Source: Opeltia flavorubescens (lineage: Eukaryota > Ascomycota > Lecanoromycetes > Teloschistales > Teloschistaceae). From it: 64,000 bases of DNA. Positions 36,155 to 46,901 of the stretch are shown here, piece after piece. A program made the translations under genes and the position numbers. Positions within the stretch are counted from its first letter, which is position 1, and each line of letters opens with the position of its first letter. The stretch lies in contig KE546979.1 of assembly GCA_000442125.1 (NCBI GenBank), positions 496,001 through 560,000 of the forward strand, read 5' to 3'. A model generated the notes under the pieces. It saw only the letters and a program-made list of their open reading frames with translations. It searched no databases and was not told where the DNA came from.

Positions 36155-39100
36155 CTACCAATCAATACCCCCATTCCCGCCAGCTGTGATAGCTTTTGCA
36201 GTTGCTACTTCACCCATTCCGCCGCTAAAGTGACTATCCTGGAATGGTTTACGGCCTTTCATGCCCTTCAACTTCTCATCGAGTTTCTTGAATGGCTCCT
36301 CCCTCTCTCCTTGCCTTACTTTCCACTTGCTTGTTCCCAGCCTCTCATCCAGCTCCTCGACTGGTGGCAGCTTGAGGTACACCCAACCATCCTCTCGTGC
36401 TTCAACCGGGAACGTTGCTAAATTCACCTCGGAATCGTTACTGCACTTACCCTCATCTTCGCCGCCAAGAGCAAAGTTCCGCTTGTGGTATGGACAGGAT
36501 ACCCAGAGCTTGTTGTTCGTCACATCGTCGCCAATGAGCCCTTCGCTCATCGCAAACGTTCGCTTGTGCGGGCACATCTGTTGCGTAGCATACCACTTCC
36601 CTTTGATCTTGAAGATAGCTAGCTGTGTGTCTCCACGCTTGATGTTTGCGCTACTACCTGTCGGAGCATCAACGAATTTACTGGCCTCGATCATTGGTTG
36701 CCATGATAGCGAGCTCCATTTGGTTCCCCGGAAGTCCTCGGTTGTGCTGGCATTTGGCCAGTACGCAGGCCTTGACTGCCCTCGCTCTTCAACTTTCTCC
36801 ACCATCTCCTGAGTCTCTGTTGTGTTGCCAAATTGCTGGAAGGCTTTACGCCGTTCCGGGTTGTTGATGGTCTCGGTCCACTCACAGAAAAACGTACCCA
36901 CGAGCTCATTCATTTGTTTCTCCAGGTCGGCACATATGCCCAGCTTATCTTCGAGTACAACTTCCCGAAGATATTGGATACCGCCAGGTAGCTGCTCCAG
37001 CCATCGTGCCGTTCGCTGCAGCTTGTCGGCTGTGCGAATATAGAACATGAGATAGCGGTCCAGGATGGGAACCACATCGTCCGGAGGCACGTCCTTGGCC
37101 AGCAGTTCCGAATGTCGAGGATTAGCTCCACCGTTGCCACCAACAAACACATTGAACCCTTTCTCCGTTGCGATGAGCCCAAAGTCCTTGTTTTGCGCTT
37201 CGGCACACTCTCGAACACACCCAGAAACTCCCCCTTTCATCTTATGCGGTGAACGAATGCTCTTGTATCGCTCCTCTAGCCTGACTGCCATACCAACGCT
37301 GTCTCCAATACCAAAGCGACACCACGTAGTTCCTACACATGATTTGACAGTCCGGAGAGACTTGGCATATGCGTGGCCCGACTCCATCCCACCATTCACA
37401 AGTTCCGTCCATATGGAAATCAGGTCTTGCTTTTTCGCTCCAAACATATCGATCCGTTGACCGCCAGTAATCTTACAGTAGAGACCATACTTTTTGGCCA
37501 CGGTGCCGATGATGATTAGCTTCTCAGCCGTTATCTCACCACCAGCTACCCTTGGAATAACAGAGAAAGTTCCATTACGCTGAATGTTTGCTAGGAATTG
37601 ATCGTTGGTGTCCTGCAGGCCATGCAGTGGTTTGTCCATAACGTGCTGATTATATAGAGATGCAAGGATCGAGCCTAAGGTCGGTTTGCACACTTCACAG
37701 CCCAATGATTCAGGGGTTTTCCCGCAATCTTTCATGACTTCCTGAAAGCTCTTCAGCTTCTTTACAGAGATGATGTTGAATAAGTCAGCGCGTGAGTATG
37801 CAAAATGCGGACAGAGATGGTTGAGGACTTCGGTGCCCATCGCTTTCATCTCGGCGTTGAATATACTCTGAACCAACGGCATACAACCACCGCAGCCTGT
37901 TCCCGCCTTGGTACATGATTTGACCTCTCCAATCGACTTGCATGATCCATCTCGGATGACCGTCGCAACGTCGCCTTTAGTAACGTTGTGACATGAACAA
38001 ATTTGGGTGTCACTACTCAAGTCACCAGAATCATCTTCACCATCTTTCTTTGCTCCGAGGATGAATTGACTTGGCGAGACATCTAACGCTTTCTGATTCT
38101 TGACCATTGGTACCAATTTGACGTAATCTTTCGTATCTCCGATCATCATCCCTCCAAGCAGATATTTGCCGTCCAGGGTGAAGAGGAATTTCTTGTATAC
38201 AGCCTGAAAAGGATCCTTATAAGTTAATGCCTTCACAGGCGGCGGCGGCGGACCATCAGTGATATCCTTGACCTTGCTCTTCTCTATTGTGGCACCATTC
38301 ATTCTCTTTGCTGCATGTTTCCTTCCTGGCATTTCCAGTGGCCCGTCCCTGTCAGCGAAAAAGTCGCCAAAGCTTGCCACTTCCACTCCAAGGAGTTTAA
38401 GTTTGGTACTCAAATCTGGACGTTTGAATTTTCTCGGTGCATGTACTTTGGCCTGTGTCAAATTGAAGGCAAGGACTTCTGCCATCTCAATACCAGGAGC
38501 GATGAGACCAAAAGTCTGGTTCTCCCAACTGGCACATTCACCAATGGCGTAAATATCCTCTGTACTCGTCATGAGACTCGGATCCACTACAACTCCTCCG
38601 CCGCGGTCCGCACATTTGATACCCGCTATCCTGGCTAACTCATCCCGAGCTTTGATCCCGATCGCAAACATCAAACACTTACAATCCATGCGCTCACCGT
38701 CTTCGAAAACAACACCTTTAACAGCGTTATCGTCATCAACCTCGATCTTCCCGACTCTTTTACTTAGCAACACATCCAACCCCAATTGCCGGACTAAATC
38801 AACCACCATTCCACCCGCATCGCCATCGAGTTGCCGACTTAATACCCATCGGTTTCTTTCTATCAGCTTCACCGTTCCAAAACTTTCTAGGTCCATCATG
38901 GCCTTAGCGGCTTCAAGACCCAGCAGCCCACCACCCACGACAGCACCCGTGCTTCCGGAACATGTCTCCGAATATTGGATGAGTTTCTCCAGATCTTCAA
39001 TGGTTCTGTAAACAAAAACACCTTTCGCATCGTGTCCGGGTGTATGACGGGGAAGCAGAGCATCCGAGCCAGTGGCAAGAACGAGGATATCATAGGGCAC

Positions 39101-39577
39101 AGTGGCGCCTGTGGATGTAGACACGACGCGGTTTGAAGGATGTATTTCAGTCACTCGTGTGTTCAGGTGGTAATTCAGAGTTCCTTCCGGCATGCCAGCA
39201 TACTACACCATGGCCAAAAGTTAGTCGGTGGCATCTCTTTCGTCGGAGGAAGAGAAGGTGTGTGCACTCACCCAGTCGTGTTTATTGAGGTACAGATTCT
39301 CTACTTCTCTATGCTGGAAATAGCTACTCAAGCCGACACGATTGTAGGCCAGATGTGGCTCCTCCCCAATGACCACAATATCGTATTCTCTCCTCTTCAC
39401 ATCCATCTTGATCAACTTCTCTATGAATGCAATACCCACCATACCAAGCCCAACCACAACAACTTTCTTTCTCTTATCTCGTGGCAAGGGATACTGAGGA
39501 CTATCTTCTTCTGGGTGGTGACCATTGACTGGTGTTTTCCCAGCCTGCATACCTGGCGAAGAATCCGCCCAGGACAT
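36155..39577 (-). CDS. niiA: Nitrite reductase [NAD(P)H], siroheme
   Basis: Reduces nitrite to ammonium with six electrons in the cytosol. Exons 39577-39272 and 39202-36155 give 1117 residues, the usual length of fungal NiiA/NIT-6. In order: FAD/NAD(P)H domain ([30 protein letters not shown]), a BFD-type [2Fe-2S] site ([11 protein letters not shown]...[11 protein letters not shown]), ferredoxin-like repeats, and the siroheme/[4Fe-4S] ligands CVGTTWC (Cx5C) and SGCVREC (Cx3C). A C-terminal Rieske-like domain carries CPHKRTF and CPYHKRNF. All cofactor cysteines look intact. The gene diverges from niaD, and both would be driven from the shared promoter interrupted by a transposon. The 69-nt intron has a GTGAGT donor. 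Confidence 0.97.
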
Positions 39578-40072
39578 CTTGGCTTAATCGATCTAAGATA
39601 GGCTCCAACGAGCAATGGACAGTCGTATACACACGTAAGTGATCCAGAGGAGCCACGGCAAAGAGGAGCACCCAAACACCTATTTCTAAGGTAGATATAA
39701 TATTGAACTGAATGAGAAAGAAATACAAGCCTACCGTTGTCAGTTGAAAGTAGGAGATGACGGACAGGACCAGCAGCTATCAAACGTCAAGCTGCTGTTC
39801 CAGGGATTAGCCACCGCCCAGGATCTACCAAATCCGCGGGGAAGTGTGCAGCGGATGCATGTATATCCTATTGGGCGCTGTTGTAAGCTCCCATGAAAGC
39901 TCGGGCATGAGAATGGATACTGAGGTGGGGTGGTCCAGATTCAAATTGGCCATGCTTTCCTGTCTTCTCCTCGGGAATATCTTCACTGCCCAGAAGAATG
40001 GCCAATTACGCACGATAAGACAAAAGGACGTTCCGATAAGCTGCGGCCAAGACTCGGCTAGCGTGTGTACTA

Positions 40073-40188
40073 CTGTCATATTCATAATTCTTGAGCCTGG
40101 GAGGCACGGGAGCCATTTGGTTTTTTTTAGTGCCCCGCACACATAAAATAACCATAGAAATCCTATTACTCCCACCACCACTATAGTT
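40073..40188 (+). repeat. Left terminal inverted repeat of the transposon
   Basis: Starts CTGTCATATTCATAATTC and ends CTATAGTT. Its first 65 bp are identical to the reverse complement of the right end. The inner 51 bp differ at eight positions, all C/T or G/A transitions, the kind RIP makes. Confidence 0.93.
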
Positions 40189-43100
40189 ATATAAATTCCT
40201 AGACTATTTTTATAGCCTAATTAGGAAATTTTAAAGCTGTAATACCGTTTTATATATCTTCTCGCTAGAAATCTAAAGCTCCTTCCTTATAACTACCGAA
40301 GAAGCTCCTTTAGATACTTCGCTAGCGTAAAAAAGGTCTATTATAAGTATATCCTACTACTCTTTTTAAATCTAAACTTAAATTAAATATTAAAGGATTT
40401 TTTTAAAATTTACTACTACCGCTACCGCCGCTTTAAATAAAGGTAAAAGAAGTAAATTTAATAAAAAACGTATATATTTCTTTACCGATAAAAATTTATA
40501 TTAATTAAGTCTATTTTTTATATATAATAGATCCTAATATTTATAGTATAGTAGAAACGTTTATATATTAGAGTATAATTTAATTTAATACTTTATTTAA
40601 TTACCGTTTAAATCTTTATAATAATTAGTTTTTTTTTATTTAATTTTAATATAATTTATTTAATTAGACGGAAATATCTACTATAATTATTATATAAAAC
40701 TAGTATTATTATAAATTTAATAGTAGAATATTTTAACTAGCGCTTTTTTTAGATAATAAAAAAAAGATAATAAAGTTATATAAATTAATATAAAAAATAG
40801 TTTTTAAAAAAAATTTTATTAAAAAAAGTTAAAATTTTTATATATAAATAAGAGATAATAATTTAATTAATTTAAATTTAATTTAATTAATATATTATAA
40901 AATTATTTAATAATATATTTATAGTAAATATTTATTATATTATCTAATTTCTATTTAAATAGAGATTATATTTTATAGAATTTTTATATATAAAAAGTAT
41001 ATTTATAATATTAAAAATAATTTTACTACTATAAATAGATAAAATAAATATTTAAAAATAATAAATATCTTTTATATTAAAAAAAAAAGTATAATATTAA
41101 ATATTTATTTTATTTATATATATATAGATTATAATATTCTTTTATATAAAAATACCGCTTCGACTTTATTAAAAAAAGGTACTTTTATAAAATAATTAAT
41201 AGTATAAATAATATCGTATATTAAAATAAAAAAATTAAATATTATATTTTAAAATATTTTATTTTATAAATAAAAGTATTTTTATAAATTATATAAAAAT
41301 ATAGATTTTATATATTATTAGAATAAAAAGAATATCTATTATAAAATTATACCTTTTTTAATTATTATATAGACTAATATAATTAAAAAAAATCTAATAA
41401 TAGATAAAATTCCTCTATATTTAATTAGATAATAGATTATTTATAAATATTATTTAAATTATAATAAATAAAAAAAGGATAAAAAAAAAATAAATCTATC
41501 TATTATATAAAATATAAATAGATTAATTAATTTAATACTATAAATTTTATTTATTAAAAATATATTAAAGAAAAAAAATAAAAAATCTATTTAAATACCG
41601 CCTATAATACTATATAATTATTATATACTTTTTCCGTATTTTTATATAGCGCTTCCGTTTATTTAATATTCTTTTTCTCTATTTTTTTTATTTTAAAGCT
41701 TTTTATAAAAATTTTTTTTTATAAATAATTCTATTAAATCTAATAAGCCTAATAAATATTTTTAATAGTTTTTTTAATAATTATTATATAAAAGCGCGGC
41801 GTTAAAAAAAGTATTTTAAAAAATATTTAATAAAGGCTATAATTTTTAAACTATTTAAATCTAAAAAAATAATATTATAATAGAATATTAATAAAAAAAG
41901 CTAAATATATTTTATAGTATTTAAATAATAATATTACGCGATATAAATAAATTCTATAAAAAATAAAAGCGCTATTAGTAGAAAATCTTATAAAAAATAC
42001 CTATATATTTAGAATAACGATTTTTATCCTCTATTCCCTCCCTTTAATTTTATTAATAAAAAAATAGAAATCCTCCGTTTAAATATATAATAGAAGAGTT
42101 TTTGTTATTATAAATAACTATTATTAATAAAAAAAAAATAGATAAAAACGAGTTATATAAATCTAAAATAGATCCGGCGGATATAATTATTTAAAAATTA
42201 AAATAGAAAATTATAAAAAATTTTTTTATTAAATTAGCGGTATATTTTAATTCTTTTTTTAAATAACTATATAGATTTTTTTTAATTTACTACCTTTTTT
42301 TTATAAGTAATATATATATTATAAAATAAATTATTTAGTTTATTTATTTTATTTCGCTCGTTTATTATATAAATAAAAATTAATTAAAGCTATTTATTTT
42401 TTTTATATAAAAGCTAGCTAGTTTATAATTATATTTTATATATACTTTTAAAATTATAAATAAAATCTTTATTAAATTTAAATCCGGCGAATAAAATAAT
42501 AAATATACTAGCTCTATTTTTATTTTAATATATATTATTTTAAATTCTATTAATTAATAAATAAAATAGTTATTTATTATAATAACTAATTTAAAGCCGC
42601 TATTATTATTATAATAAAATAATATTTTATTTTTAATAAAAATATTAAATAATTTTATATTATAAAAATTATAAAGGACTTTTTAAATAATATAACTATT
42701 AATAATAAATACTAGTAATATACTTTATTTTTTATTTCGGCTAAAATTTTATTTAATTTTTAAAAGCTCGTTTTAAAAGTTTTATTTAAATTTTTTATTA
42801 ATTAAAAAAATAGTAATTAATTATTTTATTATTAAAAAACTTAATATAATTAATATTAACCGGTTTATTTATAAGCTGTATTTTTATTAAAAAAAACCAG
42901 CTAATTTAATTATTATTCCGCGAGTTTTTTTATCTATTCTCTCTATAAATTATTATTTTATTATTTTATAATATATTAAATTTTTTTCCTATTATATTTA
43001 AATTAAATAAAAGCCTTATTAATTATTAATTATAAAATAATAATATTAAATTTATTAAAAAGGAACTATTATATTTTATTTTAATAGGTAAAAGGTTTAA

Positions 43101-43419
43101 AATAAAGGAAGTTTATAAAATACTAATAGTAATAGTTATTTAATATTAATAACCTATTTTTATTATTTAATTTTAGAGATATTATATTATTATATAATTT
43201 TAAATTACGTTTTATCCTTTTAATCTAAACTAGATTAATATTTATAATAACGATAATAGCTTTATTATTATCGCCGCGTAATAGCCGGAAAATAATATTA
43301 TTTTAAAATAATTTTAAAAGCGGCGGAGGTATATTAGATAAAACGAATTTCTAAATATATAAAGTAATATTAAAAAAATAGTAATCTAATAAAATTACGG
43401 TTTTAAATTAGCTTAAAAA

Positions 43420-43535
43420 AACTATAGTGGTAGTAGGAGCAATAGGATTTCTATAGTCATTTTATATATACGGGGCACTAAAAAAAACCAAATGGCTCCC
43501 GTGCCTCCCAGGCTCAAGAATTATGAATATGACAG
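43420..43535 (-). repeat. Right terminal inverted repeat of the transposon
   Basis: Reverse complement of the left repeat over 116 bp with eight transitions, all in the inner part. It ends GAATATGACAG before the TA target duplication. Confidence 0.93.
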
Positions 43536-44138
43536 TATTATCTCAGTCTCTTCTCTATTTTCACTCTGCCATCAAGACCACAGCGTTGGATCAACTGGTA
43601 CTTGTACTTCATCCATCTGCAGCCATCCCTCGCGTGGTGAATTCGACTTCCAGACTGGGTTTCTGGGCCAGTCGATTTTCAGCTAATGGTGATTGCACAA
43701 TGACTAAGCCTCTACGAGGATCCCATGTGCTCCGCAATCCAAGTGGCTCCGAGGGTTCATTATCTGTGGCACTAACAGATAAGAGCTCTGACTTCGCCAT
43801 CTGGGGAAAGAAGATGACAGACCTCTCTCCACCATCAGCCACTTCCGCGGGGTCGCTTGCAAGATGATCCTTCATATCATTTTCCTCTCTCATTGGCTTC
43901 TCATGCCATGGATGACAGCCTTACTGACCGTCTCCAACGCTCCGGAAAAATGATATTCCGTTGTCGATTTAAGCCCGAGAGTCTAAGATGACTGTCTGTC
44001 CTTGCATTATGTTACCATTGCTGGGACGGCTGTTAATGTGCGCTCTTATCATGTTTCTGTGATCCCCCTGGTCACAGGAAGTTATAGTACACTCCATGAG
44101 TTCCATCTTTGGCAGAAGGATTCTCGTTTCTTTCAATA

Positions 44139-46901
44139 ATGGAAGATCCATCATCTCTGCGGCATGACGAGCATTCTCGAATAATCGTAGAAAAGCACCA
44201 ACAACTACCACCCACGCCGCCCAATTCAGATGACAATGTTTCTACCTCAAGTGACTATCAAACAGAGGACGTTGAAATTCCGCTGCCCCCGCCAACCAAA
44301 ATCCCAGCCCAGGTACTCGATCAAGACAAGAAGACACCAGACGCTCATGTACCGCGAGATCCTCGGTTGATTCGGTTGACAGGCGTTCATCCTTTCAACG
44401 TAGAACCACCACTCTCCGCCTTGTTCAACGAGGGATTCCTTACCAGTCCCGAACTTTTCTACGTCAGAAATCATGGAGCAGTCCCTGAGGTCCATGAGAA
44501 AGACATCCCTGACTGGGAGTTCAGCATCGAGGGGTATGCTCAAAGCCTCCAGACCCCTAGGCCCTTTTTTGACATGAACTCGCAGGCTTGTCGAGAGGCC
44601 CATGACCGTCACTCTGCGCCAGCTCATCGCCGAGTACGAGCAGATCACCTGTCCGGTTACACTGGTCTGTGCCGGTAATCGAAGGAAAGAGCAGAATCAG
44701 GTCAGAAAGAGCAAAGGCTTTTCATGGGGCGCCGCGGGAGTCTCGACTGCCCTGTTCACCGGCGTAGCCATGGCTGATCTTGTCCGCAAAGCACGGCCGA
44801 GGAGGAGAGCAAGATTCGTCTGCATGGAAGGAGCAGATAAATTAGTACGATTCTCGCCCAGGCTGTTTCCATACGTATAAGAAGATTTACTAAAATACTC
44901 TCACTACAGCCTAACGGCTTCTACGGAACATCTGTGAAACTCAATTGGGTGATGGACCCTAACAAGGGTATGATGTTAGCTTACAAAATGAATGGCGAGC
45001 CCCTCCGACCAGACCACGGCAAGCCTTTGCGAGCTGTAATACCTGGGCAGATAGGAGGTCGAAGTGTCAAATGGCTGAAAAAGCTAATACTGACCGAGGG
45101 GCCAAGCGATAACTGGTATCACATCTACGACAATCGGGTATTGCCTACGATGATCAGTCCAGAGGAATCTGCAAATAATCCAAAATGGTGGGTGGACGAT
45201 CGGTATGCGATCTACGACTTGAGTACCAATTCTGCGACTGTCTATCCAGCACATGAAGAGCAACTTAGCCTTATCGGCGGGCCCGACAAGTATGTTGCGA
45301 AGGGATACGCTTACGGTGGAGGAGGCCGAAGAATCACGCGAGTCGAGCTATCCGTGGACAAAGGCAAATCTTGGAGATTAGCACATATCGAATACCCTGA
45401 AGACAGGTATCGTAATTGCGAGCGAGACCTATTCGATGGGCGATTGGATATGTCTTGGAGGGAGAGCTGCTTTTGTTGGTGTTTCTGGTCCTTGGATATA
45501 CCTGTATCGGACCTAGCAAATGCGAATGACCTACTTGTAAGAGCAATGGACGACAGCATGAACATACAACCCCGAGATATGTATTGGAGCGTCCTCGGTA
45601 TGATGAACAATCCCTGGTTCAGGGTGACCATAAGCAGAGAGGGTGACTTCTTGCGCTTTGAACATCCAACACAGCCAGCGATGATGCCTGGAGGATGGAT
45701 GGAACGTGTGAAGAATGCAGGCGGAAATCTAGCCAACGGCTACTGGGGTGAAAAGCTTGGGGACGAGGGAACTGATGAAACCGTCCCAGAGGTGGCGAAA
45801 GAGATCTCGATGAAGAAAGACGACATCAACCGTACCATCACTATCGACGAGCTCCGTAAACACGACGATGAACATGATCCGTGGTTTGTCGTCAACGGAG
45901 AAGTCTATTCAGGGACATCATTCATGAAAGAACACCCCGGTGGAGCCCAATCCATCATTAGCGCAGCCGGCTCAGACACCACCGATGAATTCATGGCAAT
46001 CCACAGTGAAACAGCCAAATCAATGATGCCAGGTTACCACATCGGCACCCTAGACGCCGTCGCCCAGAAAACCCTCAGCGAGCCCGAAATCCATTCTACC
46101 AACTCTGCAAACGAACCTGGACCGATCTTCCTTCGCCCCAAAGCGTGGACAACAGCTCCCCTCCACTCCAAAAAGATTATTAACAGCGACACCCGTATCT
46201 TCACCTTCCGCCTCGCTCACAATGATCAAACTGTGGGCCTTCCTATCGGTCAACATCTCATGATACGCCTCCGCGACCCCGTCACCAGAGAAGCGATTAT
46301 CCGCTCCTACACCCCTATCTCGAACCCCGAAAAAGCAGGCTTCCTCGATGTCCTCTTGAAAATCTACTTCGACACCTCCACCATCAAAGGCGGCAAAATG
46401 AGCCAAGCCATGGACGCACTTCCCATCGGCCACGGCGTCGACTTCAAAGGCCCGATCGGTAAATTCGAATACCTAGGCCGCGGCCTCTGCGCCATCAATG
46501 GTACCGAAAGGAGAGTACGCAAGTTTGCCATGATCTGCGCCGGCAGCGGCATCACGCCTATTTTCCAGGTTTTCCGCGCTGTCATGAGCGATAAGGATGA
46601 TACGACGGCTTGTAAAGTACTCAATGGGAATCGCATGGTGGAGGATATCCTCTGTAAAGAGGATCTGGATGCGCTGGTTAAGGGGAATGAGGAGAGGGCT
46701 GAGGTGCTGTATACGCTCACCAAGGCTCCAGAGGGGTGGAAGGGGTTGAAGGGGAGGATTGGTGCGGAGTTGGTTGGGAGGCATTGCGTGAGGGATGAAG
46801 GGACATTGGTGCTGGTTTGCGGACCGGAGGCGCTTGAGATGGCTATTCGGGTTGCATTGAAGGAGCAGGGGTGGCCGGATGAGCAGGTGTTGTTTTTCTG
46901 A
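44139..46901 (+). CDS. niaD: Nitrate reductase [NADPH], molybdenum-cofactor enzyme
   Basis: Reduces nitrate to nitrite in the cytosol, feeding niiA. Exons 44139-44533, 44586-44844 and 44910-46901 give 881 residues, normal for the family. The order is an acidic N-terminus, the Mo-pterin domain with the molybdenum-ligand cysteine in TCPVTLVCAGNRR, the dimerisation domain (RVELSVDKGKSW, NNPWFRV), a cytochrome b5 domain with heme-binding HPGGAQS, and a FAD/NADPH reductase with RSYTPIS, GGKMSQ, CAGSGITPIFQV and CGPEALE, ending EQVLFF. Introns fall in the first fifth of the gene (52 and 65 nt). The ATG at 44139 is the first in frame and lies near the expected promoter end. It appears fully intact despite the transposon upstream. 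No nitrate transporter gene follows within the window. Confidence 0.97.

What the first reader, a model, noticed from the sequence alone, without database searches (positions are those of the whole stretch)
40073..43535. RIP-degraded transposon inserted in the niiA-niaD divergent promoter
A 3.46 kb element with 116-bp TIRs and a TA duplication cuts the shared nitrate-assimilation promoter in two. Both genes look intact, so the pair either works from half promoters or is now uncoupled. The AT-rich block may also attract heterochromatin between the two genes. In Aspergillus the two genes share a nucleosome-free bidirectional region, so this is a natural test of that architecture.
Basis: partly seen in the sequence, partly recalled or inferred. 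Interest (0 to 1): 0.72.

Follow-up and report, generated by a model that had tools for sequence, protein, structure and literature searches.

The report
Dead transposon splits nitrate-gene promoter
In an unnamed fungus, a jumping gene wrecked by the fungus's own genome defence sits in the shared promoter of two nitrate-use genes, and each gene appears to keep its own set of control sites.

Summary
Window 40073-43535 is a 3463-bp element with 116-bp inverted ends (93% alike), 14.8% GC against 49.8% in its flanks, with TA on both sides. Two more full copies were found in the genome; all six ends lie next to TA, and no solo ends were found. RIP is well supported: copies differ mainly by transitions (360-398 against 32-33 transversions per pair) and CpA is nearly gone inside; copies lost C/G at different positions, so RIP acted at least partly after dispersal. 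A weak DDE_3 trace suggests an IS630/Tc1/mariner-type element. niiA and niaD are intact; niaD is single-copy. The ~1.1-kb shared promoter was cut so that each half keeps one TCCGCGG (NirA/NIT4-type core) and two GATAAG (AreA-type) sites; 0 of 5000 shuffles match this. Best reading: an old insertion, tolerated because two self-sufficient half-promoters remain. Heterochromatin, expression and an empty site in relatives could not be tested. The kind of event is ordinary; the place, and the escape of the outer 60 bp from RIP (3 of 54 site-ends changed), are the interesting parts.

The parts
40073..43535 (.). RIP-mutated TIR DNA transposon, 3463 bp, 14.8% GC
40073..40188 (+). left terminal inverted repeat, 116 bp
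43420..43535 (-). right terminal inverted repeat, 116 bp
40071..40072 (.). TA flanking the left end (presumed target duplication)
   Evidence: TA at 6 of 6 ends of the three copies
43536..43537 (.). TA flanking the right end (presumed target duplication)
42422..42718 (-). weak DDE_3 (PF13358) transposase trace, read with stops as X
   Evidence: 18.8 bits, E 0.0016, below the curated cut-off of 28.6; coordinates converted by hand from residues 273-371
36155..39577 (-). niiA-type nitrite reductase, 1117 aa, exons 39577-39272 and 39202-36155
   Evidence: introns placed by eye
44139..46901 (+). niaD-type nitrate reductase, 881 aa, exons 44139-44533, 44586-44844, 44910-46901
   Evidence: introns placed by eye
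39578..40072 (-). niiA half of the shared promoter, 495 bp: TCCGCGG at 39833, GATAAG at 40014 and 40035
43536..44138 (+). niaD half of the shared promoter, 603 bp: AGATAA at 43538 and 43760 (minus), CTCCGAGG 43747, GATAAG 43778 and 44045, TCCGCGG 43844

Best explanation
A cut-and-paste DNA transposon of probable IS630/Tc1/mariner type inserted at a TA in the middle of the ~1.1-kb shared 5' region of niiA and niaD. RIP then mutated it in place, together with its two sister copies, down to about 13-15% GC, and left the promoter DNA and the outermost ~60 bp of the element almost untouched. The cut left one NirA/NIT4-type core (TCCGCGG) and two GATAAG sites on each side, so each gene probably still responds to nitrate and nitrogen state from its own half-promoter. 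Shown by sequence: the element, TIRs, copies, RIP pattern, intact genes, motif partition. Inferred: transposon class, TA duplication, that the motifs work, that both genes are still induced.
For: TIRs, TA at 6 of 6 ends, three copies. RIP: 360/398/372 transitions against 33/32/32 transversions per pair; CpA makes up 3 of 304, 7 of 267 and 4 of 245 retained C in the interiors of the three copies; RIP substrate index 0.03 inside against 1.14-1.62 in the promoter flanks. RIP after dispersal: 530 of 643 interior columns that still hold a C/G in at least one copy have lost it in another, and the CpG/CpA class fits independent loss (69/62/25 seen, 66.5/67.0/22.5 expected). niiA and niaD domains complete above Pfam cut-offs; niaD has no second copy, the next hits being partial at 40% identity or less. 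Motifs: TCCGCGG in both halves in 0.06% of 5000 dinucleotide shuffles, with two GATAAG in each half as well in 0 of 5000; 2 seen against 0.02 expected from the rest of the window and about 0.06 from 1965 hits genome-wide. One of two nitrate-transporter candidates, unlinked (L037, contig C6), has 2 TCCGCGG, 2 CTCCGHGG and 3 GATAAG upstream.
Against: No expression, chromatin or comparative data. The left half has no exact A. nidulans NirA consensus CTCCGHGG, only the shorter core. Motifs were noticed by eye before the shuffle test, so its p-values are optimistic. TCCGCGG is not enriched genome-wide (1965 against 2321 for the reversed pattern). The better-scoring transporter candidate (L036) has no NirA-type site in the stretch examined, only 3 GATAAG. 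DDE_3 is below the cut-off in one copy, 12.5 bits (E 0.13) in the second, absent in the third, and the genome-wide DDE_3 search listed four places, none of them these copies. Over all C/G columns the independent-loss model is over-dispersed (312/218/113 seen, 285/272/86 expected), so some RIP before dispersal, or context effects, is not excluded.
Confidence: 0.72

Rival explanations
1. Same insertion, but the gene pair is now mis-regulated: the mutated block draws H3K9me3/DNA methylation that dampens or uncouples one or both genes.
For: Interior is 9-15% GC in most 1-kb windows; candidate DIM-2-like methyltransferase with BAH, Pre-SET protein, weak chromoshadow match.
Against: Both reading frames remain intact with private transversions already accumulated in the copies (10/13/13), which suggests continued selection on the genes; promoter flanks show no RIP spill-over. 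No chromatin data.
Confidence: 0.18
2. The element was mutated elsewhere and moved here afterwards, mobilised in trans through its intact ends.
For: All six ends keep their outer 60 bp; all three copies are strongly depleted of C/G; over all columns the loss pattern is over-dispersed.
Against: 530 of 643 retained-C/G columns differ among the copies and the CpG/CpA class fits independent loss, so much of the RIP followed dispersal; spared ends are also expected from an edge effect.
Confidence: 0.07
3. Assembly artefact that joins a repeat into the promoter.
For: No reads were available to check the junctions.
Against: Copies differ by 11-12%, each sits in different unique flanks, and TA flanks both sides at all three places; no N in the region.
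Confidence: 0.03

Closest known systems
IS630/Tc1/mariner DNA transposons (fungal DDE_3 type)
   Same: TIRs, TA at both ends, DDE_3 trace; by eye the presumed D and E in the read-through are 34 residues apart (motifs recalled).
   Different: 3463 bp is longer than the usual 1.3-2.4 kb (recalled); about 2 kb has no identified gene; the transposase match is below the curated cut-off.
RIP (repeat-induced point mutation) of Neurospora type
   Same: CpA-directed C-to-T on both strands, confined to the repeated element, with RID/Masc1-like methyltransferases in the genome.
   Different: Nothing basic; the outer ~60 bp of each end escapes.
Aspergillus nidulans niiA-niaD bidirectional promoter
   Same: Same divergent pair, similar length once the insert is left out (~1.1 kb; 1.2 kb in A. 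nidulans is recalled), NirA- and AreA-type motifs.
   Different: Physically split by 3.46 kb of AT-rich DNA; transporter candidates lie on other contigs (C13, C6), whereas nrtA is clustered in A. nidulans (PMC5348485 passages).
Scattered nitrate genes of Fusarium fujikuroi
   Same: The genes must be driven by separate promoters; its authors suggest more uncoupled regulation (PMC5348485 passages).
   Different: Here the pair is still adjacent; the split is by insertion, not relocation.

Membership tests
IS630/Tc1/mariner superfamily | terminal inverted repeats | tested here: met
   116 bp, 93% alike
IS630/Tc1/mariner superfamily | TA target-site duplication | tested here: inconclusive
   TA outside 6 of 6 ends, but no empty site to show it is a duplication and not part of the end
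IS630/Tc1/mariner superfamily | DDE/DDD transposase | tested here: inconclusive
   DDE_3 18.8 bits (E 0.0016) in this copy, 12.5 bits (E 0.13) in C17, none in C4; cut-off 28.6; 0 of 6 AT-rich control stretches hit; genome-wide DDE_3 search did not list these copies
RIP-mutated DNA | strand-symmetric C-to-T changes with CpA preference | tested here: met
RIP-mutated DNA | target present in more than one copy | tested here: met
   three copies
RIP-mutated DNA | RID-type methyltransferase in the genome | tested here: inconclusive
   two PF00145 loci without a detected BAH domain (L033, L034) look RID/Masc1-like; the assignment rests on recalled motifs
niiA-niaD bidirectional promoter | divergent nitrite and nitrate reductase genes | tested here: met
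niiA-niaD bidirectional promoter | NirA consensus CTCCGHGG and AreA (GATA) sites | tested here: inconclusive
   one exact CTCCGHGG (right half only); TCCGCGG one in each half; GATAAG two in each half; consensus from PMC3020322 and PMC5348485 passages
niiA-niaD bidirectional promoter | nitrate-dependent loss of nucleosome positioning | not testable with these tools
   needs chromatin data
heterochromatin island | H3K9me3 / DNA methylation over the block | not testable with these tools
   only candidate machinery found

The most novel reading that the evidence does not exclude
A long-standing natural split of the niiA-niaD promoter in which a constitutive heterochromatin island lies between two co-induced genes and the two halves, each with its own NirA-type and AreA-type sites, act as independent but still nitrate-synchronised promoters: a natural intermediate between the clustered Aspergillus state and the scattered Fusarium state.
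Probability: 0.3. Interest if true: 0.65.

Novelty: new member of a known kind. Interest (0 to 1): 0.42.

Why it matters
The niiA-niaD region is a textbook fungal bidirectional promoter. A natural strain in which it is cut in two, with both genes intact, lets one ask whether co-regulation needs a shared chromatin domain or only the same binding sites on each side. The three copies also give six ends on which the reach of RIP towards the edge of a repeat can be measured: about 60 bp is spared.

Tried and rejected
First alignment of the three copies had two copies in the wrong orientation; redone. First niaD splice began one base late; corrected. The DDE_3 re-test of the window (protein 4) was in the wrong frame and is not used. 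BLASTP of read-through frames against other DDE_3 relics gave many matches in most frames, an effect of AT-rich composition, and is not used. Of the partial hits at 64-71% identity, the many interior ones are taken as AT-rich similarity, not copies; one search scored 40 of 1128 candidates, so the copy number rests (6 of 6 candidates scored). Capture-recapture estimate of the pre-RIP GC is a lower bound only and not relied on. A preference for divergent promoters was considered because the C17 copy also lies between divergent ORFs, but 2 of 3 is no evidence. No paper on a transposon in the niiA-niaD promoter was found in searches (listings only; open-licence library). Muro-Pastor 1999 and Punt 1995 are not held. 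The species was not identified; niiA copy number was not searched.

Full report
The element. Window 40073-43535 is bounded by inverted repeats of 116 bp, 93% alike, and has 14.8% GC against 49.8% in 1.5 kb on each side. The window is part of contig C15 of a 34.4-Mb, 23-contig assembly. Two other full-length copies exist, on C17 (926736-930184, minus) and C4 (848995-852460, minus). A search with the TIR gave six matches, the two ends of each copy, and a TIR-end pattern with up to 3 mismatches gave 3 forward and 3 reverse, with 0 for the reversed control. I therefore see no solo ends or short relatives at this sensitivity. All six ends are next to TA.

RIP. After correct orientation the copies are 87.6-88.6% identical, with 360, 398 and 372 transitions against 33, 32 and 32 transversions per pair. 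In the interior, CpA accounts for only 3 of 304, 7 of 267 and 4 of 245 retained C (both strands) in the three copies, although A makes up about 45% of bases. The RIP substrate index is 0.03 in the interior and 1.14-1.62 in the promoter stretches on either side, so the promoter itself was not mutated. Of 643 interior C/G columns that keep the base in at least one copy, 530 lost it in another; the CpG/CpA class fits independent loss (69/62/25 seen against 66.5/67.0/22.5), while all columns together are over-dispersed (312/218/113 against 285/272/86), as context differences or some earlier shared RIP would give. I conclude that RIP acted at least in part after the copies had dispersed, that is, in place. 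The genome has a DIM-2-like methyltransferase with BAH, two shorter methyltransferase loci that I take from recalled motifs as RID/Masc1-like, one Pre-SET place and one weak chromoshadow match.

The edge. In the outer 60 bp of the six ends, 3 of 54 CpA/TpG site-ends are in the mutated (TA) state; from 60 to 120 bp it is 41 of 78; from 120 to 360 bp only 4 CpA/TpG remain in 24 bins of 60 bp, against 4 to 13 per bin in the flanks. A TA at such a site could also be ancestral, which would make the spared fraction larger. This looks like an edge effect of RIP.

Class. Read with stops as X, one minus-strand frame of this copy matches DDE_3 at 18.8 bits (E 0.0016, cut-off 28.6); the same frame gives 12.5 bits in C17 and nothing in C4, and the five other frames of this copy (the two minus ones in part) give nothing at E up to 1. 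Six AT-rich control stretches gave none. A genome-wide DDE_3 search listed four other places and not these copies. By eye, the presumed catalytic D (now N) and E (now K) are 34 residues apart, both RIP-type changes; the motifs are recalled. I call it probably IS630/Tc1/mariner-type. About 2 kb of the element is unassigned.

The genes. niiA (1117 aa, minus) and niaD (881 aa, plus) have no internal stops and hold their expected domains above the Pfam cut-offs. niaD has no second copy; other matches are partial at 40% identity or less. Copies of niiA were not searched. Nitrate-transporter candidates lie on other contigs, C13 and C6.

The promoter. Without the insert the shared region would be about 1.1 kb: 495 bp on the niiA side and 603 bp on the niaD side. 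The left half has TCCGCGG at 39833 and GATAAG at 40014 and 40035; the right half has AGATAA at 43538 right at the junction, CTCCGAGG at 43747, AGATAA at 43760, GATAAG at 43778 and 44045, and TCCGCGG at 43844. CTCCGHGG is the A. nidulans NirA consensus (passages of PMC3020322; PMC5348485); TCCGCGG as the NIT4-type core is recalled. In 5000 dinucleotide shuffles TCCGCGG fell in both halves in 0.06%, and in 0 of 5000 together with two GATAAG in each half. From the rest of the window 0.02 TCCGCGG and 0.46 GATAAG are expected, against 2 and 4; from 1965 genome-wide hits about 0.06 TCCGCGG. I saw the motifs before testing them, so these figures are optimistic. One transporter candidate (L037) has the same mix upstream; the other (L036) has GATAAG only.

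Reading. The insertion separates a small cluster of GATA motifs: two lie 33-59 bp to the left of the junction and one just to the right. Each gene keeps a plausible set of sites, and the frames have stayed open while the copies gathered private transversions (10, 13 and 13 away from gaps). An absolute age is not given because the rate is unknown. The same paper reports that the nitrate genes are scattered in F. fujikuroi and suggests looser coupling; the present locus would be a natural in-between state.

Limits. No relatives, reads, expression or chromatin data were available. The kind of event is ordinary; the place makes it useful.

Noticed in passing
window 40073-40188 and 43420-43535, and both ends of the C17 and C4 copies (L002, L003): RIP spares the outer ~60 bp of all six ends (3 of 54 CpA/TpG site-ends mutated) and rises steeply after that (41 of 78 at 60-120 bp): a measurable edge effect.
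   Followed up: partly
G000:C17:926736-930184 (L021, L022): The C17 copy also lies between divergent ORFs: a DUF7582 ORF on the left (minus) and a metallophosphoesterase ORF on the right (plus), 664 and 75 bp from the listed ORF starts.
   Followed up: partly
G000:C6:1857810, C13:234437, C2:243883, C11:1596000 (L025-L028): Other DDE_3 relics; the one on C6 has an open 131-aa frame, the other three contain stops.
   Followed up: no
G000:C9:1.04-1.09 Mb, C3:1.03 Mb, C15:1.02-1.06 Mb: Clusters of AT-rich sequence that resemble the element only by composition; possibly centromeres.
   Followed up: no
window 41.0-42.3 kb and 40.3-41.0 kb (element interior): About 2 kb of the element has no identifiable gene; the family is long for a Tc1/mariner-type element.
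   Followed up: partly
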